From Candidatus Tumulicola sp. (lineage in GTDB: Bacteria; Vulcanimicrobiota; Vulcanimicrobiia; Vulcanimicrobiales; Vulcanimicrobiaceae), in NCBI GenBank assembly GCA_036490475.1, contig DASXDT010000005.1:620001-684000 (forward strand): a DNA stretch of 64,000 nucleotides, written 5' to 3'. The position numbers and the translations under genes were made by a program. Position 1 is the first letter of the stretch. Each line of letters starts with the position of its first letter. Below are positions 7,887 through 23,738 of the stretch, piece by piece. The notes under the pieces are model-generated. The model did not search any database. It worked only from the letters and a program-made list of their open reading frames with translations, and had not been told where the DNA came from.

Positions 7887-7887
7887 A

Positions 7888-8577
7888 ATGTTCGTCCTGA
7901 TCGTCGGCGGCGGAAAAGTGGGCTCGAATCTCACCCGCGCGTTACTCAATCAAGGCCACGAAGTCGTCGTGATCGAGAAAGATGCCCGCAAGGCAAAGTC
8001 GCTGGAGCGCCTCGTCGATCGTCAGGTGACCGTCGTCGGCGACGGCTGCGATCCCGCGGTGCTCGAAACGGCCGGCGTCGCTCGAGCCGACGTCGTGGTA
8101 GCCGATACCGGCGACGACGAAGACAACTTGGTCGTCGTGTTGCTGTCGAAGCGCAAATCGAAAGCGCAGTGTATCGCTCGGGTCAACAACCCCGCCAACA
8201 AACTGATCTTCGATTCGATCGACGCTGAAGACCCGGTGATCGTGATCTCTTCGACCGAGCTGATTCTCGACGTGCTGAACCAGCACGTCAATGCCTCCAA
8301 CTGCCGCTCGTTTATGGAAACGATGCACCTGTTCGGCAAAGGCGAGATGCAGTTGTTACGCGTCGCGGTACGCGACACGTCCCCGGTACAAGGCAAGCCG
8401 TTGGGCGATTTGAACCTGCCGCGCAACTCGGTGGTGGTCGCGATCGACCGTCCCGACATGGACTTGCAAATTCCAACCGGCGATACGGTGCTTCATGCCG
8501 GCGACTCGATGATCGTGATCGTGAAGAACGGTGCGGCCGAGCGCATTCGCGCGCTTATCGGCGGTCCGGCAGCCTAA
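7888..8577 (+). CDS. TrkA-type K+ uptake regulator (second of a pair)
   Basis: The 229-residue protein has the same architecture as its upstream neighbour: an NAD-binding Rossmann motif (VGGGKVGSNLTRALL near the start, VVIEKD strand) and a C-terminal RCK_C domain (IPTGDTVLHAGDSMIVIV). Together the two could form the equivalent of one four-domain TrkA. It starts 13 nt after the first gene, behind a duplicated GAGG. Its last 23 nt overlap the end of hypF on the other strand. Confidence 0.88.
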   Translation: MFVLIVGGGKVGSNLTRALLNQGHEVVVIEKDARKAKSLERLVDRQVTVVGDGCDPAVLETAGVARADVVVADTGDDEDNLVVVLLSKRKSKAQCIARVNNPANKLIFDSIDAEDPVIVISSTELILDVLNQHVNASNCRSFMETMHLFGKGEMQLLRVAVRDTSPVQGKPLGDLNLPRNSVVVAIDRPDMDLQIPTGDTVLHAGDSMIVIVKNGAAERIRALIGGPAA

Positions 8578-10798
8578 CCGCGGCGATTGCCGCTTGTCCG
8601 AGCGCGATGCCCCCGTCGTTGGGCGGCACCATCGTATTGAGCCATAAACGCTCGCCGAAGGCTTCGGACAACTGTTCGATCAGCAGCCCGTTTTGAAATA
8701 CCCCACCCGACGCAACGACCGGACGCTTCGTATCGATGGCAGCCGCAGCTTCGACGCACGCCTGCGCGACCGCGCTATGGAACGCGCGCGCGATGTCGCA
8801 CGGCTCGCGACCGTTGCGGCGATCCCGAACGATGCTCCCGAGCAACGGGCGATAGTCGAGGGTGCCATCGCGCAACGGAAACGGATACGCATCGGCATTT
8901 CCGTCGCGCGCTAACTGCTCCACCCACATGGCCGCCTGACCCTCGAACGTCATCTCGCGCGTGAATCCGAGCAAGGCCGCCACCGCGTCGAAGAGTCGGC
9001 CCATCGACGTGGTCGCAAACGTTCGTACGCCGCTGCGCGCCAGCGCGACCGCGGCACCGTAGCGGGGTGGAAACGAAAACGGCGGCGCGATCAGATCTGG
9101 AAGGTCCTCGACCTCGAGCAAAAATCCGGCGGCCGCGGCGACCGGATGCCGTGCGGCGGCGTCGCCACCCGGCAACAGCGCCGGCCGTAGCGAAAGCGCC
9201 CGCACGAATCCGTCGCAGACGCTGCCCGTAAAAACTTCGCCGCCCCAAATCGTGCCGTCGTCGCCATATCCCGTACCGTCGAACCCCAATCCGACGACGG
9301 ACCGGTCCAGCTCGCCGCGCTCGGCCAGCACGCTGGCGACGTGCGCGCGATGGTGCTGCACGGCGATATGTCGAGCGGCCTCGAGTCCCAGCGCATATTG
9401 CGTGGATACGTACTGCGGGTGTAGGTCGTGTGCCACGACGAGTTGCCGCCGATCGACTTCGTACATCGCGCACAGATCGTCGATCGCCGTTCGAAACGAA
9501 CGCGCGACGTCGTAGTGATCCAAGTCGCCGAGATGTTGGCCGGCAAATGCTTGTCCCTCGACGACCAGTACCAACGCATTCTTGAGATCGCCGCCAACGG
9601 CAAGAATCGGCGCGCGTGATGGGAGCGATGCCACGGCGCGCGGTGCGTAGCCGCGACCATGCCGCAAGACGCTCGGACCGTTTGGCCCGACGCGAACGAC
9701 CGAATCGTCCAGACGCCGCGCGATCGGCCGTTCACCGATCAAAAACGCGTCGACGATCCCGTCGAGCCGTTGTCGCGCATCCTCGTCGTCGTAGGCGATT
9801 GGCTCGCTCGAGCGATTTCCGCTGGTCATCACCAGCCACGGCGGCGCGCCCGCGTCGAACAGCGCGTGATGCAGCGGCGTGTGTGCGAGCATCACGCCGA
9901 GATCGCGGTTGTCGGGGGCGACGTCCAGCAATGCGCGTTTGGCCGGCGCGAGGACGATCGGCCGCGCGATCGACGTTAACAACGTATCGATCTCGGGCGT
10001 CGTATGAATCAAGGCGCGCGCGCCGTCGAGGTCGCGCACCATCACCGCGAACGGCCGTTCCTTACGAAACTTGCGTTCGCGAACCGCGCGCACCGCATCC
10101 GGGTTTGCGGCGTCGCACGCCACGTGATAACCGCCGAGACCCTTTATTGCCAGCACCTTGCCTTCGCGTAACAGTTCGGACCCGCGCCGCACGGCATCCG
10201 GGCCGCGCGCCGTTTCAGTCCCATACTCCAGAACGAACTCCGGACCGCACCGCGGACACGCAACCGGCTGGGCGTGGAATCGCCGTTCGAGCGGATCGCG
10301 ATATTCGCGCGCGCAGGGCTCGCACATCGGCCAATCGCGCATCGTCGTGTTTGGCCGGTCGTAGGGCAGTTGCGTGACGATCGTGTAGCGCGGTCCACAA
10401 TTCGTGCAATTGACATACGCGTATCCGAAACGCCGATCGGCCGGGTCGCGCAACTCCGCCAAACAATCGGTGCAGACTGCGAGGTCGGGCGAAACCCGCA
10501 CGCTGACGTCGCCGGTGCGCTGCGTCGCCTCGATGGTAAACTCGGTAAAGGTGCCGGCCGGCGCTTGGCCGATGTCGATCTCGGCGAGTGCAGAGGCAGC
10601 GGGCGCCTCGTCGACCAGCGCCGCGACGAACGCGTCGATGTCGAGATCGCTGCCTTGCGCCCGAATCTCGACCCCGCGCTCGCCATTGCGCACCCATCCC
10701 ACGATCGAATGTCGCGCCGCCAAACGGTAGACGAACGGCCTGAAGCCGACGCCTTGGACGACTCCCGAGATGTGGATGCGCAGCGTGCGTTGCTTCAC
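8555..10798 (-). CDS. hypF: Carbamoyltransferase HypF for [NiFe]-hydrogenase maturation
   Basis: HypF makes the thiocarbamate that becomes the CN ligands of the active-site iron, passing it to HypE. The 747-residue protein has all expected parts in order: acylphosphatase domain (GVVQGVGFRPFVYRLA), two zinc-finger units (CTDC...CTNC and CEPC...CPRC), a YrdC-like domain and a Kae1-like carbamoyltransferase with the metal-binding HHRAHVASVLAE. Length is normal for the family. The GTG at 10798 precedes the acylphosphatase block directly and lies 11 nt after the glutaredoxin-like gene. It is the last gene of the hydrogenase operon and converges on the trkA pair. Confidence 0.95.
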   Translation of the reverse strand: MKQRTLRIHISGVVQGVGFRPFVYRLAARHSIVGWVRNGERGVEIRAQGSDLDIDAFVAALVDEAPAASALAEIDIGQAPAGTFTEFTIEATQRTGDVSVRVSPDLAVCTDCLAELRDPADRRFGYAYVNCTNCGPRYTIVTQLPYDRPNTTMRDWPMCEPCAREYRDPLERRFHAQPVACPRCGPEFVLEYGTETARGPDAVRRGSELLREGKVLAIKGLGGYHVACDAANPDAVRAVRERKFRKERPFAVMVRDLDGARALIHTTPEIDTLLTSIARPIVLAPAKRALLDVAPDNRDLGVMLAHTPLHHALFDAGAPPWLVMTSGNRSSEPIAYDDEDARQRLDGIVDAFLIGERPIARRLDDSVVRVGPNGPSVLRHGRGYAPRAVASLPSRAPILAVGGDLKNALVLVVEGQAFAGQHLGDLDHYDVARSFRTAIDDLCAMYEVDRRQLVVAHDLHPQYVSTQYALGLEAARHIAVQHHRAHVASVLAERGELDRSVVGLGFDGTGYGDDGTIWGGEVFTGSVCDGFVRALSLRPALLPGGDAAARHPVAAAAGFLLEVEDLPDLIAPPFSFPPRYGAAVALARSGVRTFATTSMGRLFDAVAALLGFTREMTFEGQAAMWVEQLARDGNADAYPFPLRDGTLDYRPLLGSIVRDRRNGREPCDIARAFHSAVAQACVEAAAAIDTKRPVVASGGVFQNGLLIEQLSEAFGERLWLNTMVPPNDGGIALGQAAIAAVRLPDRR

Positions 10799-10809
10799 CG
10801 GAACGCTGG

Positions 10810-11049
10810 TCACGCCGGCGGAGGCGCGCTCCCGACGTAACACGAGCGTCCATGCCAGCCGACTTCCAGCACCGTTCCGTCTTCGACCAGCGTCGGAACG
10901 GCGGCCGACGGCGTCATGGCTAATAGCCGGGTTCGGGCGTCTGCGTCCGCGTCGACGTCGTACTCCACAAAAACACGGCCACTCCACTCGAGCTGCTCGC
11001 GCAAATCCGGGGTGTACGGGCAGCTCGCGCTTCCGAATAACTCGAGCAC
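10810..11049 (-). CDS. Glutaredoxin-like small protein (Uxx-star type)
   Basis: This 79-residue thioredoxin-fold protein starts VLELFGSAS, then C10-P-Y-T13, a CxxT active-site-like turn, then FVEYDVD and a cis-Pro segment TPSAAVPTLVEDG; a second Cys lies near the end in GWHGRSC (Cys70). From memory this pattern fits the Uxx-star (seleno)protein group, where the first position is Sec or Cys; here it is Cys. Its GTG follows the SIS-gene stop after one base (TGACGTG). Its position between SIS and hypF suggests a redox role in hydrogenase assembly, but that is inference. Confidence 0.7.
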   Translation of the reverse strand: MLELFGSASCPYTPDLREQLEWSGRVFVEYDVDADADARTRLLAMTPSAAVPTLVEDGTVLEVGWHGRSCYVGSAPPPA

Positions 11050-11050
11050 G

Positions 11051-12250
11051 TCAGAGGAATTCCTCGCCGAGGGCCAGCCCCTCACGCACGATGTGATAGA
11101 TCGTGCCTTGGACTTCTTGAATGCGCGGGATGTAGTCCGAATGCACCACGATGGCGCGATCGGCCAACTCGCGCCGCACGATTTCGCCGCCATCATATCC
11201 GAGCAATGCGACGGTGAGCATGCCGCGCTTCCGCGCCTCTTCGAGCCCGGCGATCACGTTGCGCGATCCACCGCTCGTCGAGAAGGCGAACGCGACGTCG
11301 CCGCGCCGTCCGTGCGCAATAATTTGTCGCACGAACACAACATCGACGCCAACGTCGTTCGAAACTGCGGATAAAATCGCGGGTTCGAGCGAGAGCGACA
11401 GTGCCGGTATCGAAGCCGCGCCGTCTTCGGGCATCACGCAATCCAGCGCGAAGTCGGTCGCATCGGTCGCCGAACCGCCGTTGCCGAAGGCGAGAACTTG
11501 CGCCCCGCGGGCCACGCGCTCGGCCACGGCAACGATCGTATCGGCGATCGTCGCGCTCATCTCGCGCGCCGTGGCCTGGCGCAGGGCACGCGCGTCCCGC
11601 GCTTTGGCCTCGATCGATTCCGCTACGCTGCGGTCGAGCGACTCGTCGGGGCGCTCGCGCGCCTCGCCGAGAAACGGATACAGAAACGAAGCGGCGCCGA
11701 CATCGGTGCCACCGATTTCACGATGCTCGAAATACACGTGGACGCTTTCGTATAGCGTGTGGCCGAGAATCTCGAACAATTCCTGATGCAGATGCGCGTC
11801 GTCGCTGGGCGCGGCGACCGCATAATCGGCGCGATCGCCCGGAAACGCCACGGTCAGCGCGCCTCGTTCGCGCGCGCGATCGAGCACGGCCTGCACTAGG
11901 TCGTCACCCTGCGGCGGCCCTAGACCGACCACGATATCGTCCGGACGGACGACCGCATCGACCCAACGCTCCGGCGCGACGCTTAAATCCATGGCCGGAA
12001 GCGCGCGCTTACCGACGATCACCGGATGCACGAATTCGACCGAAAGATGCTGCGCGTCGGTCGCGTATGGGCCTCGTCCCACGGCCAGCAATCGTCCACC
12101 GCGGTCGAAACGCTCGAACACTCGGCGAGCGGCGCGCGCCAACGGCAGCGCCTCGCGCGCGAAAAATGCGTCGGCAATCGCATCGCGTGCGGCAAACCGG
12201 TCGGCAACCCACGTCGTGAGGCGCGCGCGGCGATCGAGACCGGTCAACAT
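11051..12250 (-). CDS. Tandem SIS-domain protein in hydrogenase operon
   Basis: The 399-residue protein contains two sugar-isomerase (SIS) domains. The second has the full phosphosugar-binding signature AFGNGGSATDATDFALDC and STSGGSRNVIAGLEEAR, like GmhA-type phosphoheptose isomerases; the first has a divergent copy (AVGRGPYATDAQHLSVEF). SIS proteins are frequent but unexplained members of group 1h hydrogenase clusters. The ATG at 12250 overlaps the hypE stop by 7 nt and begins the first domain; the longer open frame is hypE out of frame. A simple carbohydrate role is also possible. Confidence 0.8.
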   Translation of the reverse strand: MLTGLDRRARLTTWVADRFAARDAIADAFFAREALPLARAARRVFERFDRGGRLLAVGRGPYATDAQHLSVEFVHPVIVGKRALPAMDLSVAPERWVDAVVRPDDIVVGLGPPQGDDLVQAVLDRARERGALTVAFPGDRADYAVAAPSDDAHLHQELFEILGHTLYESVHVYFEHREIGGTDVGAASFLYPFLGEARERPDESLDRSVAESIEAKARDARALRQATAREMSATIADTIVAVAERVARGAQVLAFGNGGSATDATDFALDCVMPEDGAASIPALSLSLEPAILSAVSNDVGVDVVFVRQIIAHGRRGDVAFAFSTSGGSRNVIAGLEEARKRGMLTVALLGYDGGEIVRRELADRAIVVHSDYIPRIQEVQGTIYHIVREGLALGEEFL

Positions 12251-13302
12251 ATTCGCGGCAGCGGATCTCCAACGAGCATGTCGACAACGCGCGTTCCGCC
12301 GTAGGCTGTGGTCGCGATCACCATGCCGGCCGGGGCGTCGCGAACCTCGCCGATGCACGCAGCCTGCTCTCCGCCCGGAAGCGCGCGCAAGGCCGCCAGT
12401 GCGGCGTCGGCAACGTTGTCGGCGACGAGAGCGAGCATCTGCCCTTCGTTCGCGATGTGCAACGGATCGAGGCCGAGCAGTTCGCACGCGCCACGCACCT
12501 CGTCTCGCAACGGAACGCGTTCTTCGGAAATTGCGATCGCATGGTGCGAGCCGCGAACCAACTCGTTGAGCGCGGTCGCGACGCCGCCGCGCGTCGGATC
12601 GCGCATCCAGCGCAGTCCGCTGCCGCACGCTTCTAATAACGCGTCCACGAACGGCCAGAGCGGCCGCGTATCGGAATGCAGATCCGTTTCGAAATCTAAA
12701 TCTCCGCGCGCCAGCAAGATCGTGATGCCATGATCGCCGATCGGTCCGGTGAGCAGCACGCGGTCGCCGCTCACGATTCGATCCGGTCCGAGCGACGCTC
12801 GCTGGTCGACGATCCCGATGCCGAAGGTGGTGACGTACAGCCCGTCGGCCATGCCGTGCTCGACGACTTTGGTATCGCCGCCGACGATCGGAACGCCGGC
12901 ACGTGCGGCGGCATTCGCCATGGTTTCGATTTCGGCGCGCAACACGTCGCTCGGGAGACCGGCCTCGACGATCAGCGTGGCCATCAACGCGTGGGCGCGC
13001 GCACCCGACACGGCAAGATCGTTGACCGTCCCGTTCACCGCCAGTTCGCCGATCGAACCGCCCGGAAAGCGCAGCGGCTTGACGACATAGCCGTCGGCCG
13101 TCGTCGCGACGCGCGTTCCGCCCAGCGAAAACACGGCCGCGTCCGAAAGCTGCGCTAACACCGGGTTGGCGAACGCCGGCGCGATCAAACTTTCGACTAA
13201 ACGGCGCGAGGCTTTCCCGCCGGCCCCGTGCGCCATTTCGATCTGCGCATCGGTGAAGCGCAGGCGCGACGCCGGCGCGGCAGCTCGATCCAACGTATCC
13301 AC
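12244..13302 (-). CDS. hypE: Hydrogenase maturation protein HypE
   Basis: HypE receives the carbamoyl group from HypF on its C-terminal Cys, dehydrates it to thiocyanate and passes CN to the HypC-HypD complex. The sequence ends PRIC, the diagnostic tail with the acceptor Cys. Other family blocks are AHGAGGKASRRL near the start, VNGTVNDLAVSGA and MRDPTRGGVATALNEL, as in the PurM/AIRS ATP-binding fold. I chose the GTG at 13302, one base after the hypD stop (TAACGTG), which gives about 352 residues; an ATG at 13341, overlapping hypD, is the alternative. Confidence 0.93.
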   Translation of the reverse strand: MDTLDRAAAPASRLRFTDAQIEMAHGAGGKASRRLVESLIAPAFANPVLAQLSDAAVFSLGGTRVATTADGYVVKPLRFPGGSIGELAVNGTVNDLAVSGARAHALMATLIVEAGLPSDVLRAEIETMANAAARAGVPIVGGDTKVVEHGMADGLYVTTFGIGIVDQRASLGPDRIVSGDRVLLTGPIGDHGITILLARGDLDFETDLHSDTRPLWPFVDALLEACGSGLRWMRDPTRGGVATALNELVRGSHHAIAISEERVPLRDEVRGACELLGLDPLHIANEGQMLALVADNVADAALAALRALPGGEQAACIGEVRDAPAGMVIATTAYGGTRVVDMLVGDPLPRIC

Positions 13303-13303
13303 G

Positions 13304-14422
13304 TTACGCGGTTGCGGCGGCTGGCTCGTCGATGCGTGCATAGCGGTAATACGCAGCGCACGCACCTTCGCTCGACACCATCAACGCGCCAATAGGGTGC
13401 TCGGGATTACATTCTTTACCGAACAACTTGCACTGCGGCGGCTTCAACACACCCTTGAGGATCTCGCCGCATTGCGCGGCCTTGGGATCGGTAACGCGCA
13501 CGCCCGGAACGTCGAAGATGCGCTCCGCGTCCCATGCGGCGAACGCGTCGGAGAGTTTGAGCGCTGACTGGGAGATGAATCCCAAACCGCGCCACTCGAA
13601 GTACGGTCGCAACTCGAACGTTTGCGCCATGGCGCGCAAGGCCGGAATGTTTCCGTCCCACGGTACGATGCGCCGGTATTGGTTTTCGACCTCGGCGCGT
13701 CCCTCGCGCAACTGCACGAGAATCCGCGCGATCGACTCGAGCATATCCAGCGGTTCGAAACCCGAGATCACGATCGGCTTCCCGTAGTCGCGCGAAACGA
13801 ATTCGTACGGCCGGCAGCCGGTGACGGTCGAGACGTGTCCCGGCCCGATGAATGCGTCTAACCGCATGTCGGGCGAATCCAAAATTGCGCGCATCGCCGG
13901 CACGATCGTGACGTGGTTGCAAAAGACCGAGAAATTCGTAATACCAAGTTCTTTGGCGCGCAGCAGCGTCAGCGCGGTCGACGGCGCCGTCGTTTCGAAA
14001 CCGATGGCAAAAAAGCAAACGTGACGATCGGGTTCGTTCTGTGCGATGCGCAAGGCGTCGAGCGGCGAGTAGACCATGCGAACGTCGGATCCCCGGGCCT
14101 TGAACTCGAGCGGCGTGCCCCTCGTTCCCGGAACGCGCATCATATCGCCGAACGCGGTCAAGATGGTACCGGGATGTTCGACGATCGAAAGACCGTCGTC
14201 GACGCGCCCCATGGGTAGCACGCACACCGGACAGCCGGGACCGTGGATGAGCTCGATGTTGTCGGGCAACAAATCTTTGAGGCCGTGACGATAGATCGCG
14301 TGGGTGTGGCCGCCGCACACCTCCATAATGCGGTAATGGCGATCCGGATCGATCTGTCGCTCGATCTCGCGAACGACGTTTCGAATTAACTGCGGATCGC
14401 GATACTCGTCGACGTACTTCAC
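13304..14422 (-). CDS. hypD: Hydrogenase maturation protein HypD
   Basis: HypD is the iron-sulfur scaffold on which the Fe(CN)2CO unit is built together with HypC. The 372-residue protein keeps the signature Cys motifs: EVCGGHTHAI near residue 35, GPGCPVCVLP near residue 62 and the C-terminal cluster region CKLFGKECNPEHPIGALMV plus EGACAAYYRY. Length is normal. Its GTG start overlaps the hypC stop by 4 nt (GTGA). Confidence 0.96.
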   Translation of the reverse strand: MKYVDEYRDPQLIRNVVREIERQIDPDRHYRIMEVCGGHTHAIYRHGLKDLLPDNIELIHGPGCPVCVLPMGRVDDGLSIVEHPGTILTAFGDMMRVPGTRGTPLEFKARGSDVRMVYSPLDALRIAQNEPDRHVCFFAIGFETTAPSTALTLLRAKELGITNFSVFCNHVTIVPAMRAILDSPDMRLDAFIGPGHVSTVTGCRPYEFVSRDYGKPIVISGFEPLDMLESIARILVQLREGRAEVENQYRRIVPWDGNIPALRAMAQTFELRPYFEWRGLGFISQSALKLSDAFAAWDAERIFDVPGVRVTDPKAAQCGEILKGVLKPPQCKLFGKECNPEHPIGALMVSSEGACAAYYRYARIDEPAAATA

Positions 14423-14709: not shown

Positions 14710-14724
14710 GTGACGTCGAACCCG

Positions 14725-14838
14725 CTACATCGCCTCGGATTTGAGGTAACGCACAAGTTCGGGGCCTTGCTGCGCCAACACGACCAATGCGCCCAGGACG
14801 ATCAGCGTCGCCAATCCGCCCGTCCAATTAATTTTCAC
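14725..14838 (-). CDS. 37-residue single-pass membrane peptide (DUF6893-like)
   Basis: A 37-codon frame from GTG at 14838 to TAG at 14725 fills the gap between the maturation protease and hypC. It has one membrane helix (LATLIVLGALVVLA) followed by a polar C-terminus, GPELVRYLKSEAM. From memory this matches the DUF6893 small proteins found at the same position in actinobacterial hydrogenase clusters (hydrophobic helix, then a RYL-type motif near the end). It overlaps the protease stop by 11 nt. It may be a membrane tether or assembly factor for the otherwise soluble hydrogenase; this is inference. Confidence 0.7.
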   Translation of the reverse strand: MKINWTGGLATLIVLGALVVLAQQGPELVRYLKSEAM

Positions 14839-15640
14839 GTTCGCGCTCCTTCGATTCGGTAGTGAGTTCGTCGATGAGCCGTCGCACGGCATCTGCGGCC
14901 GGCACGATTGCGAATCGGACCGGTTCGCTGAGTTCTTCGGTTATTTCCCCCGAATCCGGGTCGGGCACCGTTTCGGGCTCGCAGGTTACGACCAGCGTCT
15001 TGCGCGGCAACGTTCCCAACCGGCGAGCCAGCGCCAGCACGCTCACCGGATCCATGCCGTGCCCTTCGATAGCGCGTGCCGGAAGGTCGTCAATCTCGGG
15101 ATCGATCACGCTGACCGTTCCCGGTGATTCGCCGCGAGCGGCAAGATCTATGAGGATCGCGGCGTCGTACCCGTCGACCAGCGCATACGCTAGATCGAAT
15201 CCACGGATGCCAAACTCGATCGCATCGACGCCGGCGGGAAGCGCAGATTTCTGCAGATTTCGAACGACATGCAGTCCGAACGCATCGTCGCCCAAAAAAA
15301 CGTTGCCGATACCGGCGATCAACACTCGGGCAGGTAGCGCCGCACCGGCGACCGCTTCGACTTCGTTGGGACGAAAGAAAAAACGATGCGCAAGGCTCCG
15401 GCCTTTGCCGAGCGTTCGCGCCGGATCGGCGTCGAGGATGACCGCCAGCGAGACGTTTCCCTCGAGATCCTCGATGACGGCGTCGACGCTCGCTAACCGG
15501 CCGTCTAACCCGCGCGAGATCGGATCCTGCGCAGCCTCTGGCCGCAGCCGCACGACGGTCCCGGCGCGCACGATCGTATCGCCGACGGTGACGCTTTGCA
15601 CGCCCGGGCGCGACAGCTCGTCCCATGCTTCGAGGTTCAC
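14828..15640 (-). CDS. Hydrogenase maturation protease with extra N-terminal domain
   Basis: The C-terminal part (about residues 105-265) is a HycI/HupD-type endopeptidase: RVLIAGIGNVFLGDDAFG holds the first metal-binding acid, a central ALVDGYDAAILIDLA block the second, and GHGMDPVSVLALAR the His. It would remove the large-subunit tail after nickel insertion. The first ~100 residues form a separate small beta-rich domain (GDTIVRAGTVVRLRP, HRFFFRPNEVE) of unknown role. The GTG at 15640 overlaps the upstream stop as GTGA. Total 270 residues, longer than the usual ~160-residue protease because of the added domain. Confidence 0.88.
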   Translation of the reverse strand: MNLEAWDELSRPGVQSVTVGDTIVRAGTVVRLRPEAAQDPISRGLDGRLASVDAVIEDLEGNVSLAVILDADPARTLGKGRSLAHRFFFRPNEVEAVAGAALPARVLIAGIGNVFLGDDAFGLHVVRNLQKSALPAGVDAIEFGIRGFDLAYALVDGYDAAILIDLAARGESPGTVSVIDPEIDDLPARAIEGHGMDPVSVLALARRLGTLPRKTLVVTCEPETVPDPDSGEITEELSEPVRFAIVPAADAVRRLIDELTTESKEREREN

Positions 15641-16596: not shown

Positions 16597-16597
16597 G

Positions 16598-17254
16598 TTA
16601 CGGCTCGCGTCCCGATAGCAACGCCTCGATCGTCGAGTCCCACGTCGTCAGCCCGTGCTGAGCACGATACGTCTGTAAACGCCGCAACAGGCGGTCGTCG
16701 ATTCGCAGCCAGGCGGTACCGTTGAACACGGCGTCGACGGCCGCGCGCCAGGTCGACACGTCGATGCGGAAAGCGATTTCCGTATCCCACGGCAGCTTGC
16801 CGGCCAGCATGCGTTCGCCGCCCCGATAGAACACGGTTCCAGTCGGCAGAATTTCGACCGGAATGAAGCCGCCCTCGAGCGCGGTTGCGTATTTGACGGC
16901 GACCATGTCGAATTCGTAACCGCACGGCAAAATCACGGTCGTATCTACGCTGTCTTCGAATGCCGGTACGTTGATCGTTCCGCGAGTCCAGACGATCGGT
17001 CCGATCGAGCGATCCCAATCGCCGTCCGAGCCGAATAGCTCGCGCAAACGGCCTCGCTCTGCGTCGCTGTAACGGCGGCGTTCGGCGGCGATTCGAACGT
17101 CGACGTTCAACGCCAATCCCAACACCGAAACGCCCGCCTCGGCCGCGATCGACAGCGTTGCGCGCAGCGACGGCGTTGCAGCATCGGTGGCTGCCTGGAC
17201 GCTGCGCACGCCGAACTGCAGACGCGGCATCGCGCCGAGCGCGGCGTCGATCAC
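16598..17254 (-). CDS. DUF6084-like hydrogenase-cluster protein
   Basis: The 218-residue protein has strong matches, from memory, to the DUF6084 pattern: the RRRYSDAERGRLRELFG segment, a Trp-containing TRGTINVPAF stretch, LPCGYEFDMVAVKY, GTVFYRGGERM and the final LTTWDSTIEALL. It is soluble and lacks Cys pairs, so it is unlikely to bind a metal cluster. The GTG at 17254 overlaps the stop of the 71-residue gene as GTGA; the longer open frame upstream is that gene and DUF5947 out of frame. Role: unknown assembly or electron-transfer partner. Confidence 0.82.
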   Translation of the reverse strand: MIDAALGAMPRLQFGVRSVQAATDAATPSLRATLSIAAEAGVSVLGLALNVDVRIAAERRRYSDAERGRLRELFGSDGDWDRSIGPIVWTRGTINVPAFEDSVDTTVILPCGYEFDMVAVKYATALEGGFIPVEILPTGTVFYRGGERMLAGKLPWDTEIAFRIDVSTWRAAVDAVFNGTAWLRIDDRLLRRLQTYRAQHGLTTWDSTIEALLSGREP

Positions 17255-17466: not shown

Positions 17467-17468
17467 CG

Positions 17469-18098
17469 TCAACTCCTCGTGCGCGCGTCGGCGCGCGGTG
17501 AAAGCTCGTCGAAAAAACGCGCGACCTCGCGCCGTACCGTATCGCCGCCCCCGATACCATGCCAGTGCTTACGAAATAGCGCGACCAATCGGAAACAAAC
17601 GTCGATGCCCGTCAACCAGTAGCGAGGCGGCTTCGCGAGCCGATCGACCAATACGGCTTCTACTTGCGGTTGCAAGGAGTGCAGTGCCGGGTTGGCGTCT
17701 TCGATTTCCGTCCACGAGTCGAGCGGCAGCGTCGACTCGATGCGACCCGCCGGACTCGGATAATATGCCCGAATCGTGCCGTCGCCGCCGCGCACGAAGA
17801 ACGCGAGCTCGACCGGTATGCGCAACGAACGCCAGGCAGATTCGTCGATGTCGATCGCTACAGGACGCCGGCGCTCCGGCACGAGCCGGTACTTGTCGCC
17901 TCCTGCTGCGTCATGATCGAACAGCAGCGCACACGGGCGGCACGCGCACAGTATCTCGCCGGCCGACAGCTCGAGCACGTGACGATGCTGTTCCGGCACG
18001 TTGGCGCCGCATAATTCGCACCGCTCCGGCGCGTCCGTCGCCTGACGACGCACGCCAGAGCCATCGATCAGCGCGCGCAACCGCGACGGAGCGGTCAC
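17469..18098 (-). CDS. DUF5947-like zinc-ribbon protein of hydrogenase cluster
   Basis: The 209-residue protein has a Cys-rich unit near residues 25-60, CELCG followed by an HRHVLEL strand and CACRPCALLFD, which looks like a zinc or iron-sulfur site, then a beta-rich region (YRLVPERRRPVAI, RAYYPSPAGRIES) and a C-terminal Trp-rich segment (YWLTGIDVCFRLVALFRKHW). The pattern fits DUF5947 proteins of group 1h clusters (from memory). The GTG at 18098 overlaps the NifU-like stop as GTGA. It may hold a redox or structural metal centre that interacts with the hydrogenase. Confidence 0.82.
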   Translation of the reverse strand: MTAPSRLRALIDGSGVRRQATDAPERCELCGANVPEQHRHVLELSAGEILCACRPCALLFDHDAAGGDKYRLVPERRRPVAIDIDESAWRSLRIPVELAFFVRGGDGTIRAYYPSPAGRIESTLPLDSWTEIEDANPALHSLQPQVEAVLVDRLAKPPRYWLTGIDVCFRLVALFRKHWHGIGGGDTVRREVARFFDELSPRADARTRS

Positions 18099-18559
18099 AG
18101 TACGACCAGGGAATGCGCCGGTTGCTCTTCGGCCTCGACACGTGCGATCTCGGGTGCTGCCGCGCATATGGCCTCTTCGATCGCCGACTTGAGCGTGACC
18201 GAGGATGCAGCACAGCCGTTGCACGTGCCCGACATACGGACGCGCACTACGTCGCCGTCGATCGCGGCTAACTCGACGTTGCCGCCGTGGGAGGCGATGT
18301 ACGGGCGTACGCCGTCAAGTGCCGCGCCGACGCGGTCCGTCAGCGTGTCCGGATGGAGATCGTGCAATACTAACAGCGGTCCGACGGCTTGGTCGTCGGC
18401 CAACTGGCGGACGAGTTGCGGCGACGATCGCACCGTCGCTATCACCCTCCGGAGTGCACCCCCGTAGAGCTGAAGTAGTCCGGAAATCGCCGCCAGCGCG
18501 CGCTCGTCCTCGACGCCCGCCAGCAGCGCTTCGAGTTCGTCGACATCGTGCGCCGGCAC
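18095..18559 (-). CDS. NifU C-terminal-domain-like Fe-S protein
   Basis: The 154-residue protein has a helical N-terminal part and a C-terminal Nfu domain with the CxxC cluster motif (SGTCNGCAASSVTLKSAIEEAI spans the motif; key residues are the two Cys of CNGC). Such domains bind or transfer a [4Fe-4S] cluster. Immediately downstream of the large subunit, it may carry electrons or deliver clusters to the small subunit. The GTG at 18559 lies 14 nt after the large-subunit stop; the frame upstream of it is the large-subunit gene out of frame. Confidence 0.88.
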   Translation of the reverse strand: MPAHDVDELEALLAGVEDERALAAISGLLQLYGGALRRVIATVRSSPQLVRQLADDQAVGPLLVLHDLHPDTLTDRVGAALDGVRPYIASHGGNVELAAIDGDVVRVRMSGTCNGCAASSVTLKSAIEEAICAAAPEIARVEAEEQPAHSLVVL

Positions 18560-18573
18560 GTACGGAGCCTCGC

Positions 18574-20361
18574 TTAGCCTTGCGGTCCGAAGATCGGCGA
18601 ATGCACCCGTTCGACCGTCTTGCCGTTGCCCACGTACATATGCACGCCGCACGGTAAACACGGATCGAAGCTACGCACCGCTCGCATGATGTCGACGCCG
18701 CGAAAATCGTCCGGGCCGTTCTCTTCGAACAGCGGCGTGCCTTGCACCGCATCTTCGTAGGGTCCCAACCGTCCGTCCGAATCGCGCGGATTGCCGTTCC
18801 AACAGGTCGGCGGCCACGGTTGATAGTTCGCGATCTTTCCCTCGCGAATCACCAAATGATGCGACAGCACGCCTCGCACGGCTTCGTGAAATCCGCACCC
18901 GATGGCTTCCTCGGGAACTTCGAAATCGTTGAACGTCTTGGTCTGGCCGCGTCGAACGAGATCCAGCGCCTGCTCGATGAAATGCACCGCTTGCGCTGCC
19001 GCGTAGGCGACAAAGTACACGCGCGCCCGGTCGCGCTCGAGCGCGTTCGACCACTTCGGAATCTTCCACTCGAACGTCGTCTCGGGAAAGGCGCGCGATT
19101 TCGGCAGGTTGATCTGCACGCTGTGGCCGGTCGATTTCACATATCCGGTGTCGACGATACCGGCCAGCGCGGTCGACCAGAGTCGCGCGAGCGCGCCGCC
19201 GCCGGTGTCGATCGCGACGGTTTCGGCGGTGTCAGGATTCACCCACCGGGGGCTCATCACCCAACTATACTTTCCGCCGTTCAAATCGCGCTTTTGCGGT
19301 TTCGGAAGCGTCGTGACGTTCCACGGATGCCGCCGGTCGACCGGATTTCCCAGCGGGTCGCGCTCGACGAACATCTCCTCGTTCGTCCAATCTTGATAGT
19401 ACGAACTACCCAGCATGATTCGAATGCCGAGGTTGATCTGCACGAGATCGGTCGTCACGAGTTTGCCGTCGATCACGACGCCCGGGGTGACCTTCATCTT
19501 GCGGCCCCAGTCGGTCATGTGCTCGTAACGGTAGTCGCATTCGAACGGATCCTGGAACGATCCCCAGCAGCCCATCGCGATGCGCCGTTGCCCGACTTTT
19601 TCGTATCCCGGTAACGCATCGTAGAAGAAATCGAAGACGTCGTCGTTCATCGGAACGGCTTTTTTGATAAAGTCCAACACGCTCAACAAGCGCGAAAGGT
19701 AATCGGTGAAAATTTGCGGCGTCGCGACGGTTCCGGTACCGCCCGGATACAGCGTCGACGGATGAACGTGCCGCCCTTCCATAAGGCAGAACATTTCGCG
19801 GGTGGTGCGGCTGACTTCCAGCGCCTTTAGGTACAGTTCGCCCGTGAACGGGTTGAAGGCGCGCATGATATCGGCGATCGTTTTGTAGCCGTGAATATGG
19901 CTGTTCGGCGCCTTCGTTTTTTCGGCTTTGGCCAGAACGCTGGGATTCGTCTCTTTCACGATCTGCTCGCAGAAATCGACGAAGACCAGGTTGTCTTGGA
20001 AAATCGTATGGTCGAAGATGTATTCGGCCGCCTCACCCAAATTGAAAATTAATTCGGCCATCGGCGTCATACGAATGCCGTAGGCCATGTTTTGTGCGTA
20101 CACCGAACATGTCGTGTGATTGTCGCCGCAGATGCCGCAGATGCGGCTGGTAATAAACCCCGCATCGCGCGGATCTTTACCCTTCATGAACACGCTGTAG
20201 CCGCGGAACATCGACGACGTGCTCTTGCATTCGACGACTTCTCGATTTTCGAAATCGATCTTGGTGTAGATTCCTAAGTTACCGACGATGCGGGTGATCG
20301 GATCCCACGAGCGCTCGACGAGCTTGCGCGGCTCGGTGCTGACGTCTTCGGCGATGCTCAT
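18574..20361 (-). CDS. hhyL: [NiFe]-hydrogenase large subunit, group 1h type
   Basis: This subunit holds the NiFe active site that splits H2. The four nickel ligands are in RICGICGDNH (Cys75, Cys78, with His82) and SFDPCLPCGVH near the end (Cys568, Cys571, His574). The 21 residues after His574 are the tail expected to be cut by the protease in the operon. The L1 motif followed by TTC and the L2 with PCGVHMY match, from memory, group 1h enzymes of Mycobacterium, Streptomyces and Ralstonia. The ATG at 20361 overlaps the small-subunit stop (ATGA); an earlier ATG lies inside that gene. 595 residues. Confidence 0.95.
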   Translation of the reverse strand: MSIAEDVSTEPRKLVERSWDPITRIVGNLGIYTKIDFENREVVECKSTSSMFRGYSVFMKGKDPRDAGFITSRICGICGDNHTTCSVYAQNMAYGIRMTPMAELIFNLGEAAEYIFDHTIFQDNLVFVDFCEQIVKETNPSVLAKAEKTKAPNSHIHGYKTIADIMRAFNPFTGELYLKALEVSRTTREMFCLMEGRHVHPSTLYPGGTGTVATPQIFTDYLSRLLSVLDFIKKAVPMNDDVFDFFYDALPGYEKVGQRRIAMGCWGSFQDPFECDYRYEHMTDWGRKMKVTPGVVIDGKLVTTDLVQINLGIRIMLGSSYYQDWTNEEMFVERDPLGNPVDRRHPWNVTTLPKPQKRDLNGGKYSWVMSPRWVNPDTAETVAIDTGGGALARLWSTALAGIVDTGYVKSTGHSVQINLPKSRAFPETTFEWKIPKWSNALERDRARVYFVAYAAAQAVHFIEQALDLVRRGQTKTFNDFEVPEEAIGCGFHEAVRGVLSHHLVIREGKIANYQPWPPTCWNGNPRDSDGRLGPYEDAVQGTPLFEENGPDDFRGVDIMRAVRSFDPCLPCGVHMYVGNGKTVERVHSPIFGPQG

Positions 20362-21431
20362 TCGCTGGCTGCCTTTCTGTCGTTCCCCCATCGGGGATCG
20401 CTGCCCGTGGTTAAGACCGGTCCGTTATGCCGCCACGACGGTTCTTCGCTGGCGGTGCGGTTGGTAATCGAACGAAGCATCCGGATGAGCTTGCCGTACG
20501 GCGCGATCAGCGTCGACGAGATCGTCGCGCCGGCCGGTTCGTCCATGAACGGCATGAACTTGTCCGGGAATCCCGGCATCGTGCAGCCGATGCAAATGCC
20601 GCCCACGTTGGGACAGCCGCCAATCCCGACCTGCCAGCCACGCTTGGTAACGTTACAGTTGACCACCGGCCCCCAGCAACCAATTTTTACTTGGCATTTG
20701 GGCGAGTTGTAGTCCATCGCGAAATCGCCTTGCTCGTAGTATCCGGCGCGGCTACAGCCTTCGTGCACCGTCTTTCCGAACAACCATTGCGGACGCTGCA
20801 TGCTATCGAGCGGAATGATCGGCGCGTTGCCGGCGGCCTGGGCCAACACCCACGCCAGCGTTTCCATGAAATTTTCGGGCTGCACCGGACATCCAGGCAC
20901 GTTAACGATCGGAAGTCCGCCGGCCGAGCGAAAATCTGCGCCGAGATAGTCGCCCAATCCCATGCAACCGGTCGGGTTTCCAGCCATAGCATGGATGCCG
21001 CCGTACGTCGCGCACGTACCGGCCGCAACGACCGCCCACGCCCTCGGCGCTAACCGATTGATCCACCAGTTGAGCGTGAGCGGCTCGCCGGTTGCCGGGT
21101 CGTTTCCCATCGACGTCCAGTAGCCGTCACCGCTGATATGTTCGTTCGGTATCGAACCTTCCACGACAAAAATAAACGGCGCGTCGAGTTCGTCGTTGGC
21201 GGCTTGGAAAAACGGTTTGAGAAATTCATCGCCACCGAACGTCGGCGATAATACTTTGTTGTGCAAATGCACTTTGGGGAGGCCGGGAATCAATCCCAGT
21301 AGCACGTCCTCGATCGACGGTTGCGACGAGTTGGTAATCGACACCGAGTCTCCGTCGCAGCTCAACCCCTCGGACGTCCACAGGATGTGAATCTCGTCGA
21401 ATTTGGGGGTAGGGGAGTATGTCGTCGCCAT
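20358..21431 (-). CDS. hhyS: [NiFe]-hydrogenase small subunit, group 1h type
   Basis: The small subunit passes electrons through three Fe-S clusters. In the N-terminal motif EGLSCDGDS, Cys25 is kept but Asp28 replaces the usual second Cys, the Asp/3-Cys proximal cluster known from the crystal structure of the actinobacterial-type Ralstonia enzyme. Other Cys motifs are GTCATYGG, NVPGCPV, HEGCSRAGYY, CWGPVVNC and GICIGCTMPGFPDKF. No Tat signal is visible, so the enzyme is probably cytoplasmic-side. The ATG at 21431 has an AAGAGG ribosome binding site. First gene of the 15-gene unit. 357 residues. Confidence 0.95.
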   Translation of the reverse strand: MATTYSPTPKFDEIHILWTSEGLSCDGDSVSITNSSQPSIEDVLLGLIPGLPKVHLHNKVLSPTFGGDEFLKPFFQAANDELDAPFIFVVEGSIPNEHISGDGYWTSMGNDPATGEPLTLNWWINRLAPRAWAVVAAGTCATYGGIHAMAGNPTGCMGLGDYLGADFRSAGGLPIVNVPGCPVQPENFMETLAWVLAQAAGNAPIIPLDSMQRPQWLFGKTVHEGCSRAGYYEQGDFAMDYNSPKCQVKIGCWGPVVNCNVTKRGWQVGIGGCPNVGGICIGCTMPGFPDKFMPFMDEPAGATISSTLIAPYGKLIRMLRSITNRTASEEPSWRHNGPVLTTGSDPRWGNDRKAASE

Positions 21432-21490
21432 ATGCGCGTACCTCTTGAACGGGATGTTACCCACGACAACGGAATCTACCCGCTCGCAAC
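21432..21490. promoter_or_regulatory. Divergent control region of hydrogenase operons
   Basis: Only 59 bp separate the starts of hhyS (minus) and hypA (plus), so both promoters must lie here or run into the genes. The minus-strand ribosome binding site AAGAGG is visible. I cannot assign -35/-10 hexamers or an operator with confidence. Confidence 0.35.
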
Positions 21491-21907
21491 GTGCACGAAA
21501 TTTCGATCGCAATGGCCATCGTCGAAGAGCTCGAGGAAGCAGCCGTCGAGTCCGGATATACACGCGTTTATGCGGTGCGTTTACAGATCGGCGAACTGTC
21601 GTGCGTGGTAAACGAAGCACTCGAATTCGCGTGGGAACTCGCTGCTGCAGATACGATCGCTTCGGGCGCGCGATTGGAGATCGAGCGGGTCGACGTTGCG
21701 CTAGAATGTCCCGCGTGCGGACGGACCGGAAAGCCGCTCGCACCGAATCACTTCGTTTGTTCGAACTGCAGTTCGGCGTCCGCGACGATCGTTCGCGGAC
21801 GGGAATTGCTCGTCGTCGCCATGGAGGTGGATGATGCCGATGCGGGTGGTGGAGATCGCGCGCTCCATCCTCAAAAAGAACTCGACGCTGGCGGACGGTC
21901 TGCGTAA
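21491..21907 (+). CDS. hypA: Nickel metallochaperone HypA
   Basis: HypA delivers nickel to the large subunit together with HypB. The protein starts (M)HEISIAMAIVEE: the Met and His2 of the nickel site are present. The zinc loop is CPACG with FVCSNC about 20 residues later, a CxxC pair. The product is 138 residues, about 20 longer than usual; the extra tail overlaps the first 77 nt of hypB, so the C-terminus may be disordered. The start is GTG with no strong ribosome binding site. Confidence 0.92.
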   Translation: MHEISIAMAIVEELEEAAVESGYTRVYAVRLQIGELSCVVNEALEFAWELAAADTIASGARLEIERVDVALECPACGRTGKPLAPNHFVCSNCSSASATIVRGRELLVVAMEVDDADAGGGDRALHPQKELDAGGRSA

Positions 21908-22628
21908 GCGATTTTCCGAACAGCGAACGTACGTCTTCAATCTACTGTCGAGTCCGGGCGCCGGCAAAACGACGCTGCTCGAAGCCTCGCTGCGGCGGCT
22001 CGACGAGCGCTATCGTGTCGCCGCCCTGGTGGGCGATCAGGCGACCGAAAACGATGCGGTGCGCCTGCGGCGCAGCGGAGTGCCGGTCAAGCAGATTACC
22101 ACCGGAGGCGAGTGCCGCCTGGACGCGATCATGATCGAAGACGCGCTGACCGGTTGGGAGCCGCCGTCGCTCGACGTCCTAGCGATCGAAAACGTCGGCA
22201 ATCTGATCTGTCCCGCCGAATACGACTTGGGCGAAGACTTACGCGTGGCACTCTTTTCCGTTACCGAAGGCGAGGACAAGCCGCTCAAGTATCCGCTGGC
22301 CTTTAATACGGCCCACGTCGTGCTGATCACCAAGATCGACCTAGCTGCAGCTGCCGAGTTCGACGAACGCGCCGCGCGCCAAGCAATCGAGCGCGTGCAT
22401 CCCGGCGTAGCGGTGCTCGGCGTCTCGTCGCGTAGCGGAGCAGGCATGGACGAGTGGATGGCGTTCCTTACTTCTCGGATCGACGCGAAGCGGTTTCCGA
22501 ACTCCACCGGCGCGACGCCACATGCACACGCGCACGCGCACGACCACCAGCACGCCGATGGTCCCGAGCACGCGCACGTGCACGACCACGCGCACACGCA
22601 CGACCATCCACACGATCACGAGCACTAA
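21831..22628 (+). CDS. hypB: Nickel-inserting GTPase HypB with C-terminal His tail
   Basis: HypB is the GTPase that drives nickel insertion. The P-loop is SSPGAGKTTLLEA near residue 42, with later SIMIBI-class motifs IENVGNLICPAEYDLGE (metal and switch region) and ITKIDL (guanine-specificity). The 265-residue chain ends in 16 His within the last ~36 residues, a nickel-storage tail. In most bacteria such a His-rich stretch, when present, is N-terminal; here it is C-terminal. A GGAGG site lies just before the ATG at 21831; an ATG at 21834 fits the spacing slightly better. It overlaps hypA. Confidence 0.93.
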   Translation: MMPMRVVEIARSILKKNSTLADGLRKRFSEQRTYVFNLLSSPGAGKTTLLEASLRRLDERYRVAALVGDQATENDAVRLRRSGVPVKQITTGGECRLDAIMIEDALTGWEPPSLDVLAIENVGNLICPAEYDLGEDLRVALFSVTEGEDKPLKYPLAFNTAHVVLITKIDLAAAAEFDERAARQAIERVHPGVAVLGVSSRSGAGMDEWMAFLTSRIDAKRFPNSTGATPHAHAHAHDHQHADGPEHAHVHDHAHTHDHPHDHEH

Positions 22629-22640
22629 CCGAGTGCGACG

Positions 22641-23738
22641 ATGAGCCAAGCGTTTGGTCTCGCGAGCCTACGCCACGTCGTCGCTAACGCATCGCCGCAA
22701 ATTCGTCGCGACATCGCGCGCATGTACTCGGTACTCGTCGTTTTCAACGTGGGCATTTGGGCTGCGGCATTAGCGCTTTTCTGGCGGCATCCGGCACTGC
22801 TCGGGACCGCGCTCCTCGCCTATACGTTCGGTTTGCGCCACGCGGTCGACGCCGACCATATCTGCGCCATCGACAACGTGACGCGCAAGCTGGTACAAGA
22901 CGGGCGCCGCCCGGTTGCGACCGGCTTCTTCTTCTCGCTCGGCCACTCGACCGTGGTTCTGGCGTTAACGGTCGCGATCGCGGTCGCCGCCACGTTCGTG
23001 AAGCATGGCTTGCCGCAACTAGCGAGCGCCGGCGGCCTTGCGGGCACGGTCGTATCGGCGACCTTCTTGTTGGCGATCGCCGTGCTGAACGCATTCGTGC
23101 TCGCCGACGTGCTGCGCGCGTTCGCCGACGTGCGGGCCGGGCGCGTCTATCACCAAGTTCGTGTCGACGAGTCCTTGCAACGCCGCGGCTTTTTCGGGCG
23201 CATTTTTTCTCCCTTACTGCGGGTCGTCGACCGCAGTTGGAAAATGTATCCGATCGGCGTGCTGTTCGGTCTGGGCTTCGACACCGCGACCGAGGTCGGA
23301 CTTCTCGGCATCGCCGCCGTCGAGAGCGGAAACGGGATGCCGGTGATGGCGATACTCGTCTTTCCGCTGTTATTCGCGGCGGGCATGTCGCTGCTCGACA
23401 CGACCGACGGCATTCTGATGCTCGGCGCGTACGGCTGGGCCTTCGTGAAACCCGTGCGCAAGCTCTATTACAACGCGGTAATCACGTTTGCATCGATCGT
23501 CGTGGCCGTCGGTGTCGGCGCTGCGGAAATACTCGGCATGGTCGTAGATCGGATGCGCCTCACCGGTCCCATTTGGAACCTAGTCGGGTCGCTCAACGAC
23601 CATCTTGGAATCCTCGGTTTCGCCGTTATCGGCTCGTTCGTCGTTATCTGGGCGGTATCGGCGTTGGTGTACAAATACCAACGCTGGGACGAGCTAATGG
23701 ACGTGCGTGAAGTTGCCGAGGGCGGCGCAGGCCCGTAG
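22641..23738 (+). CDS. Nickel/cobalt permease (NixA/HoxN family)
   Basis: The 365-residue inner-membrane protein has about eight membrane segments and the family signature in the second, RHAVDADHICAIDN (HAxxxDH), plus GFFFSLGHSTVV and FGLGFDTATEVGLL. It imports Ni2+ for hydrogenase assembly. It starts 12 nt after hypB in the same direction, so it is probably the third gene of the hypAB unit. Its last 45 nt overlap the end of the radical SAM gene on the other strand. Confidence 0.92.
   Translation: MSQAFGLASLRHVVANASPQIRRDIARMYSVLVVFNVGIWAAALALFWRHPALLGTALLAYTFGLRHAVDADHICAIDNVTRKLVQDGRRPVATGFFFSLGHSTVVLALTVAIAVAATFVKHGLPQLASAGGLAGTVVSATFLLAIAVLNAFVLADVLRAFADVRAGRVYHQVRVDESLQRRGFFGRIFSPLLRVVDRSWKMYPIGVLFGLGFDTATEVGLLGIAAVESGNGMPVMAILVFPLLFAAGMSLLDTTDGILMLGAYGWAFVKPVRKLYYNAVITFASIVVAVGVGAAEILGMVVDRMRLTGPIWNLVGSLNDHLGILGFAVIGSFVVIWAVSALVYKYQRWDELMDVREVAEGGAGP

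What the first reader, a model, noticed from the sequence alone, without database searches (positions are those of the whole stretch)
8555..23738. Complete group 1h [NiFe]-hydrogenase island in one 15-gene operon plus hypAB-nickel permease
All maturation genes (hypA-F, protease), both subunits, nickel uptake and five accessory proteins of the actinobacterial-type set are present without gaps, so the enzyme can probably be made and matured from this locus alone. Group 1h enzymes are known for scavenging atmospheric H2 under energy limitation; the presence here suggests such a lifestyle. The link from genes to physiology is inference.
Basis: partly seen in the sequence, partly recalled or inferred. 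Interest (0 to 1): 0.75.

Follow-up and report, generated by a model that had tools for sequence, protein, structure and literature searches.

The report
Hydrogen-oxidising gene island of mixed ancestry
[quoted passage not shown] its unusual point is that the enzyme genes look borrowed from Actinobacteria-like bacteria while the genes that assemble the enzyme are the local kind.

Summary
The island is real and complete: hypA-hypB-nickel permease on the + strand and 13 (not 15) genes on the - strand, hhyS to hypF. It is group 1h: HhyL matches the solved C. necator enzyme HofG at 999 bits, against 173 for the next chain; the core gene order of pHG1 is the same; active-site motifs and the proximal-cluster Asp are conserved. 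Such enzymes are already known from the host's probable phylum. Scavenging of air-level H2 remains inference: C. necator's group 1h enzyme has Km 3.6 uM and does not use atmospheric H2 (PMC7174314). The genome has no RuBisCO match and no CO dehydrogenase large subunit over the cut-off.

HhyS+HhyL fall in a mainly actinobacterial clade, apart from the phylum's other group 1h enzymes (AU p 4e-35 and 4e-5). HypD+HypE sit inside the host's own family (99/96). The probable borders are hypA|hhyS and protease|hypC. Two other lineages appear decoupled in the same way (groups named after seeing trees). Verdict: an ordinary enzyme system, encoded by a two-module chimera.

The parts
20358..21431 (-). hhyS, hydrogenase small subunit, 357 aa from ATG 21431; proximal-cluster motif CDGDS with Asp
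   Evidence: HofK (5aa5) 547 bits, next chain 145; start; Cys columns and D28 conserved in 88 of 88 rows except C156 (60 of 88); Actinobacteria-like
18574..20391 (-). hhyL, hydrogenase large subunit, 605 aa, motifs RICGICG and DPCLPCGVH with residues beyond the His for the protease to remove
   Evidence: HofG (5aa5) 999 bits; inside a mainly actinobacterial clade
18095..18661 (-). hhyE-like NifU-domain protein, short form (CNGC motif, no C-terminal two-CxxC part); true start perhaps GTG 18559
   Evidence: PF01106 E 2.5e-23; tail lacks CxxC; ancestry undecided (121 bits in the family, 111 outside)
17469..18098 (-). DUF5947 protein
   Evidence: PF19372 E 5.2e-62; window+family held together AU p 0.047
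16598..17254 (-). DUF6084 protein (start uncertain, GTG 17254 or ATG 17230; the ORF opens at 17560)
   Evidence: PF19562 E 1e-59; model pLDDT 86, no clear PDB fold; AU p 0.003 against the family
15637..16596 (-). unnamed 319-aa accessory protein, N-terminal part of a protein that is longer in most relatives
   Evidence: no Pfam or NCBIfam family at E 0.001; homologues in group 1h loci; AU p 1e-4 against the family; no clear fold match
14828..15640 (-). fusion: C-terminal domain of the preceding protein + hydrogenase maturation protease; GTG start at 15640 overlaps the TGA of the previous gene (GTGA)
   Evidence: same fusion in 18 of 94 loci, domain on the upstream protein in 58, own frame in 6, no hit in 12; protease TIGR00072
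14419..14709 (-). hypC
   Evidence: PF01455 E 2.7e-25; best bits in the host family (123 against 105)
13304..14422 (-). hypD, only copy found in the genome
   Evidence: PF01924 E 5.8e-150; 1 match in G000; family-type
12244..13341 (-). hypE (start uncertain: ATG 13341, GTG 13302 or other; ORF opens at 13365)
   Evidence: AIRS and AIRS_C domains; family-type
11051..12250 (-). GmhA-like SIS protein, 399 aa from ATG 12250, apparently of two SIS-like halves (ORF opens at 12628)
   Evidence: SIS_2 in the C-terminal half only; gmhA model, two stretches; the C. necator SIS protein aligns to both halves (28% and 37%)
10810..11049 (-). glutaredoxin-like protein resembling the Uxx-star type, CPYT motif and C-terminal Cys
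   Evidence: PF00462; NF041212 49.7 bits (below its cut-off of 66); relatives in 5 family loci and 2 others of 94
8555..10813 (-). hypF, only copy found in the genome (start GTG 10813 or 10798)
   Evidence: TIGR00143 699 bits over cut-off 466
21491..21907 (+). hypA, divergent from hhyS (59 bp between the starts)
   Evidence: PF01155 E 3.7e-31
21831..22628 (+). hypB with a His-rich C-terminus
   Evidence: PF02492 E 2.6e-17; groups with the host family, SH-aLRT 95.5
22641..23738 (+). nickel permease (NicO family)
   Evidence: PF03824 E 1.9e-93; a relative sits beside the same radical-SAM gene in the same-genus genome G076

Best explanation
The locus encodes a group 1h [NiFe]-hydrogenase (Hhy) and what is needed to build it. 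NicT and HypA/HypB supply nickel; HypC-F make and insert the Fe(CN)2CO unit; the protease trims HhyL; HhyS takes the electrons; the NifU-like HhyE and three proteins of unknown role presumably help electron delivery or assembly; aerobic oxidases are the sink. Gene content, homology and motifs are shown; the working of the enzyme is inferred from family knowledge. The island is a chimera: the structural block hhyS-to-protease (about 14828-21431) descends from a mainly actinobacterial lineage, while hypC-to-hypF and hypAB-nicT are of the host family's own type. The simplest account is replacement or insertion of a structural cassette beside a resident maturation set (direction and mechanism inferred).
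For: HhyL 999 bits to HofG, next 173; HhyS 547 to HofK, next 145. Core order hhyS-hhyL-NifU-like-DUF5947-DUF6084-hypothetical-protease in C. necator pHG1 and in L035, L036. Small-subunit Cys columns and the proximal Asp in 88 of 88 rows, except C156 in 60 of 88. Structural tree, 46 rows: window in a 30-row clade (100/100), window+family rejected, AU p 4e-35. HhyL tree: the 14 other phylum rows form one clade (100/98), window outside, p 4e-5. HypD+HypE tree, 33 rows: window with family 99/96, union with 17 actinobacterial rows rejected, p 1e-7. Single genes: hhyS, DUF6084 and hyp319 reject the family, hypB joins it. Best bits favour outsiders for 7 of 17 queries (hhyS, hhyL, DUF5947, DUF6084, hyp319, its C-domain, protease) and the family for 10, nifU only narrowly. 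Over long stretches no other genome of 149 in the phylum has an HhyL nearer than 72%; an actinobacterial MAG has 77%. HypD and HypF single-copy; 4 COX1 matches.
Against: No expression, H2 uptake or affinity data. The NifU-like gene has no clear ancestry; the protease does not reject the family (AU p 0.17), DUF5947 barely does (0.047), and HypF is placed neither way (p 0.51); nicT, hypA, hypC, SIS and Grx were judged by best bits only. In the HypD+HypE tree the family clade is itself next to Solirubrobacterales-type Actinobacteria (100/99), so the maturation half is not free of actinobacterial ties. Codon use of the block is not atypical (0.483 against 0.41 +/- 0.08 for random sets): composition gives no independent sign of transfer. 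The window's branch is long (0.39-0.44) and its place inside the clade unresolved (81/95), so no donor can be named. Rows were picked by hand, and the outside loci came from a search with this protein.
Confidence: 0.83

Rival explanations
1. Whole-island vertical inheritance: the window's structural genes belong to the phylum's own group 1h and only look Actinobacteria-like because the family's genes changed fast.
For: Same layout (hypBA divergent from hhySL, then DUFs, protease, hypC-D-E-SIS-Grx-F) in family members where readable.
Against: Window+family rejected for HhyS+HhyL (p 4e-35), for HhyL with 14 phylum rows (p 4e-5) and for hyp319 and DUF6084. The window also shares the domain-to-protease fusion with 18 of 94 loci, 17 of them from actinobacterial records and one acidobacterial, and with none of the 10 family loci in which the domain was found.
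Confidence: 0.05
2. Ancient duplicate structural cassettes in the phylum followed by differential loss, so no recent cross-phylum transfer.
For: Codon usage of the block is not atypical; the window branch is long.
Against: Among the 148 other phylum genomes no long HhyL of the window type was found (the fragments in G091 and G014 were not placed in a tree); it needs many losses.
Confidence: 0.12
3. A group 1h enzyme of ordinary, micromolar affinity, like C. necator's, used for locally produced H2 rather than for air (this concerns the physiology, and can be true together with the best explanation).
For: C. necator group 1h Km 3.6 uM and no atmospheric oxidation (PMC7174314); the window's HhyE is short, as in C. 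necator.
Against: Short HhyE tails are common (68 of 94 loci), also in a Streptomyces locus (L069), a genus in which atmospheric H2 uptake is reported (PMC6883350, passages; PMC4767420, listing).
Confidence: 0.35

Closest known systems
Actinobacterial-type (group 1h) hydrogenase of Cupriavidus necator H16, pHG1 (HofG/HofK, PDB 5aa5)
   Same: Large subunit 73% and small subunit 68% identical; same core order; CDGDS proximal motif
   Different: There hypF follows the protease and hypA, hypB lie downstream on the same strand; SIS protein shorter; no glutaredoxin-like hit; unnamed protein longer and protease separate
Hhy of Mycobacterium smegmatis (MSMEG_2722-2718)
   Same: Group 1h with an HhyE-type NifU protein that is required for H2 oxidation (PMC6883350, passages)
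   Different: The paper describes HhyE with two C-terminal CxxC motifs and a truncated subset; the window's is short. The M. smegmatis sequence itself was not fetched
Group 1h loci of the host's own family, including G086, which fits Vulcanimicrobium alpinus WC8-2
   Same: Closest for HypB and HypD+HypE in trees, and by best bits for HypA, HypC, SIS, Grx, HypF and NicT
   Different: HhyS/HhyL of another clade; unnamed protein unsplit in the 10 loci where the domain was found; YceI-domain genes between protease and hypC in the 5 family gaps tested, no room for them here; three of the seven other genomes tested have RuBisCO matches
Actinobacteria MAG ZMQR.bins.7 (L048)
   Same: Best HhyL match, 77%, HhyS 79%; a glutaredoxin-like gene divergent from hhyS
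   Different: The C-terminal domain has its own reading frame, not fused to the protease; no hypC-F hit in the 16 kb held, whose end lies in the protease frame

Membership tests
group 1h [NiFe]-hydrogenase | Large subunit nearest to known group 1h enzymes and apart from groups 1c, 1d, 2b, 3d | tested here: met
   (999 vs 173 bits); quick tree: on the group 1h side of a long branch. Group labels of references are recalled; no group 1l, 1m or 2a reference was knowingly included; one row (L029) looks like a wrong frame with a very long branch
group 1h [NiFe]-hydrogenase | L1 (RICGIC..H) and L2 (DPC..C) Ni-Fe ligand motifs | tested here: met
   alignment, invariant in 12 sequences
group 1h [NiFe]-hydrogenase | Asp as a ligand of the proximal FeS cluster (mentioned in PMC7174314; the motif CDGDS as its place is recalled) | tested here: met
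   C25 and D28 in 88 of 88 rows
group 1h [NiFe]-hydrogenase | Associated NifU-like/HhyE gene directly after hhyL (usual, not universal) | tested here: met
   short form
group 1h [NiFe]-hydrogenase | High affinity for H2 (sub-micromolar) | not testable with these tools
   Not universal in the group: C. necator Km 3.6 uM (PMC7174314)
atmospheric chemosynthesis (H2/CO oxidation with RuBisCO) | RuBisCO large subunit in the genome | tested here: not met
   0 matches in G000 (95.94% complete); 3 of 8 genomes positive; 5 of 14 control genomes ring
atmospheric chemosynthesis (H2/CO oxidation with RuBisCO) | Form I CO dehydrogenase large subunit | tested here: not met
   best 243 bits in G000 against a cut-off of 991; 2 of 6 genomes exceed it (G085, G076)
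island of single ancestry | Structural and maturation genes place the host in the same clade | tested here: not met

The most novel reading that the evidence does not exclude
Group 1h islands behave as two exchangeable modules. The cassette hhyS-hhyL-HhyE-DUFs-protease moves between phyla as a unit, carrying its own C-terminal protease, and plugs into a resident, more general hypA-F/nickel set. In this genome the borders lie at hypA|hhyS and protease|hypC. The same decoupling is seen in an acidobacterial MAG (L104), whose HypDE are kin of the window's family but whose HhySL are not, and in the Streptomyces/Frankia/Blastococcus group.
Probability: 0.6. Interest if true: 0.55.

Novelty: new member of a known kind. 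Interest (0 to 1): 0.38.

Why it matters
Soil bacteria that scavenge H2 with such enzymes are the primary sink in the H2 cycle (PMC6883350, abstract). If structural cassettes are traded between phyla while local maturation genes stay, HhyL trees will misjudge which organisms can mature the enzyme, and the cassette boundary predicts the smallest set that must be moved to express the enzyme in a new host (hhyS to protease). It also marks three uncharacterised proteins (DUF5947, DUF6084 and the unnamed protein) as travelling with the enzyme rather than with the general maturation set.

Tried and rejected
Rejected: a 15-gene operon (13 counted). Frameshift at 15.64 kb: considered because homologues join the two frames; rejected because 18 of 94 loci have the same split with the domain fused to the protease and the window junction is a GTGA overlap. 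The short HhyE as a sign of a broken enzyme: rejected, 68 of 94 loci are short (13 more have a long tail with fewer than two CxxC, 10 a long tail with two, 3 no hit; contig ends were not excluded). Selenocysteine in the Uxx-star-like glutaredoxin: a Cys stands there in the window and in the 7 loci with a hit.

Led nowhere: fold searches of DUF6084 and the unnamed protein (TM scores under 0.5 in the 50 rows shown of each); promoter and terminator scans; codon usage. A clean empty site: in relatives the slot by the trkA pair holds kdp genes or is short (the printout was cut, and Pfam was run on one locus, L184), so no pre-insertion site was found. In G076 (same genus, 91% complete) nicT lies by the radical-SAM gene near a contig end, and no HhyL or HypD was found, so absence there is not certain.

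Literature searches. No title or abstract start in the listings reports module exchange in group 1h islands; horizontal spread of hhyL is in print (PMC6776052, passages). Papers were seen as passages only or in listings; PMC4767420 in a listing only.
Full report
Observation. Between 8555 and 23738 the window holds a complete hydrogenase island. On the minus strand, in order of transcription: hhyS, hhyL, a NifU-like gene, DUF5947, DUF6084, an unnamed 319-aa protein, a fused domain+protease, hypC, hypD, hypE, a GmhA-like SIS protein, a glutaredoxin-like protein and hypF: 13 genes. Divergently: hypA, hypB and a nickel permease. Co-transcription is likely (many overlaps) but not shown: there are gaps of 118 bp and about 210-235 bp, and the sigma-70 consensus scan found no site in the stretch.

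Group. HhyL scores 999 bits against HofG (5aa5), the next solved chain 173; HhyS 547 against HofK, the next 145. In a quick tree with C. necator MBH, RH and SH, E. coli HyaB and HybC, and other hydrogenases of the host family, it is on the group 1h side of a long branch. One row there (L029) looks like a wrong frame, and references for 1l, 1m and 2a were not knowingly included. L1/L2 motifs are invariant in 12 sequences. The small-subunit Cys columns and the proximal Asp are in 88 of 88 rows, except C156 in 60 of 88.

Neighbourhood elsewhere. In C. necator pHG1, Methylocystis parvus and Mycobacterium intracellulare the order hhyS-hhyL-NifU/hypothetical-DUF5947-DUF6084-hypothetical-protease is the same; hyp genes are placed variously. 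So the gene set is a textbook one. A 2025 paper still lists four genes beside hhyL as of unknown function, one of them NifU-like in two of three strains (PMC12319191, passages).

Host. G000 is a 3.32-Mb, 96% complete genome in 7 contigs. In its family, 21 of 99 genomes have a match to HhyL; counted from the table, 15 (G000 included) match it at 68% or more, two of them (G091, G014) in short fragments only, and six at 48% or less. G086, one contig of 3,508,363 bp, 69% GC in the 20 kb read, with HhyL and RuBisCO, fits Vulcanimicrobium alpinus WC8-2 (3.50 Mbp, 68.4% GC, group 1h and form IE RuBisCO; PMC9758169, passages). The host is therefore probably an Eremiobacterota (Vulcanimicrobiota) bacterium; this is inference. 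Group 1h in that phylum is published (PMC9758169; PMC9561532, passages), so the finding as stated is a new member of a known kind.

Mixed ancestry. Best bits per gene over the 94 loci: the family wins for hypA, hypB, nicT, hypC, hypD, hypE, SIS, Grx and hypF; outsiders win for hhyS, hhyL, DUF5947, DUF6084, the unnamed protein, its C-domain and the protease; the NifU-like gene is close (121 against 111). For hypC, D, E, F, SIS and Grx the best outsider is the acidobacterial L104. Trees agree. HhyS+HhyL, 46 rows: window inside a 30-row clade of Actinobacteria, one Chloroflexota and two Myxococcota (100/100); window+family rejected at AU p 4e-35. HhyL alone with 14 other phylum rows: these form one clade (100/98), window outside, p 4e-5. 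HypD+HypE, 33 rows: window with five family rows (99/96), joined by L104 at 100/100 and then by four Solirubrobacterales/Thermoleophilia-type rows (100/99); union of the window with 17 actinobacterial rows rejected, p 1e-7. Single-gene tests of window+family: hhyS p 7e-52, hyp319 1e-4, DUF6084 0.003, DUF5947 0.047, protease 0.17; hypB groups with the family (95.5); hypF undecided, p 0.51. The borders are thus probably the 59-bp hypA|hhyS gap and the 118-bp protease|hypC gap. In the five family loci tested that second gap holds a YceI-domain gene, absent here.

Domain shuffling. In 58 of 94 loci the C-terminal domain of the unnamed protein is part of that protein; in 18 it is fused to the protease, as in the window; in 6 it has its own frame (three of these without a hit to the upstream part, near contig ends); in 12 it was not found. 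The window junction is a GTGA overlap. A domain that sits on either protein suggests that the two work together (inference).

Other decoupled cases. L104 (acidobacterial MAG): family+L104 rejected for HhySL (p 1e-111), yet L104's HypDE join the family; L104 with C. necator and Methylocystis rejected for HypDE (p 2e-20). Ten of the 11 rows of a structural clade (Streptomyces, Frankia, Blastococcus, Micromonosporaceae, Actinomadura and others) are rejected as one clade for HypDE, p 9e-22. These groups were named after the trees were seen, and orthology of the hyp copies within the 10-kb flanks was not proved.

Function. In M. smegmatis HhyE is required for Hhy activity (PMC6883350, passages). 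The window's HhyE lacks the C-terminal part, as do 68 of 94 loci by a simple tail rule. HypD and HypF are single-copy, and the only other PF00374 match in the genome is a weak one at C5:386951 that was not pursued, so this island likely serves this hydrogenase alone. The genome has four COX1 matches, no RuBisCO match and no CO dehydrogenase large subunit above the cut-off. The best reading is an organism, probably heterotrophic, that can respire H2 aerobically. Whether it reaches atmospheric levels is open: C. necator's group 1h enzyme does not (PMC7174314, passages).

Accessory proteins of unknown role. Models of DUF6084 (mean pLDDT 86) and of the 319-aa protein (83) are mixed, largely beta in their core, and show no convincing PDB match.

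Verdict. Real, well assigned, ordinary in kind. The added result is a chimeric island with well-supported phylogenetic conflict, and a hint that the two modules are exchanged repeatedly.

Noticed in passing
window 3147-3501 (-): Rfam finds a tmRNA gene at 114 bits that the ARAGORN scan of the same window did not report.
   Followed up: no
window 7017-8577 (+) and L183-L188: Two TrkA-type genes flank the island; in six relatives the neighbouring slot holds what in L184 are kdpA, B, C, KdpD and a two-component pair (Pfam on L184 only, the rest by similarity), while G000 has its KdpD-like protein on another contig.
   Followed up: partly
window 23694-24974 (-): A radical-SAM gene conserved at 61-73% identity in 14 of 14 other genomes searched, overlapping the 3' end of the nickel permease; function unknown.
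   Followed up: no
L104 (acidobacterial MAG): Carries a SIS, a glutaredoxin-like gene and HypDE akin to the window's family, with HhySL of another clade.
   Followed up: partly
L036 (Mycobacterium intracellulare plasmid): Its HhyL groups with the host phylum's clade (100/97) rather than with the other Actinobacteria in the tree, and the island is followed by NADH dehydrogenase genes on the plasmid.
   Followed up: no
L039, L040, L045, L046, L047: YceI-domain genes lie between protease and hypC in these family islands; their link to the hydrogenase is unknown.
   Followed up: partly
window 35941-37809 (+): CHASE2 plus adenylate/guanylate cyclase protein followed by a TauE-type permease.
   Followed up: no
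window 46997-49171 (+) and 39255-40856 (+): Two large open frames (725 and 534 aa) without a Pfam match at E 1e-5.
   Followed up: no
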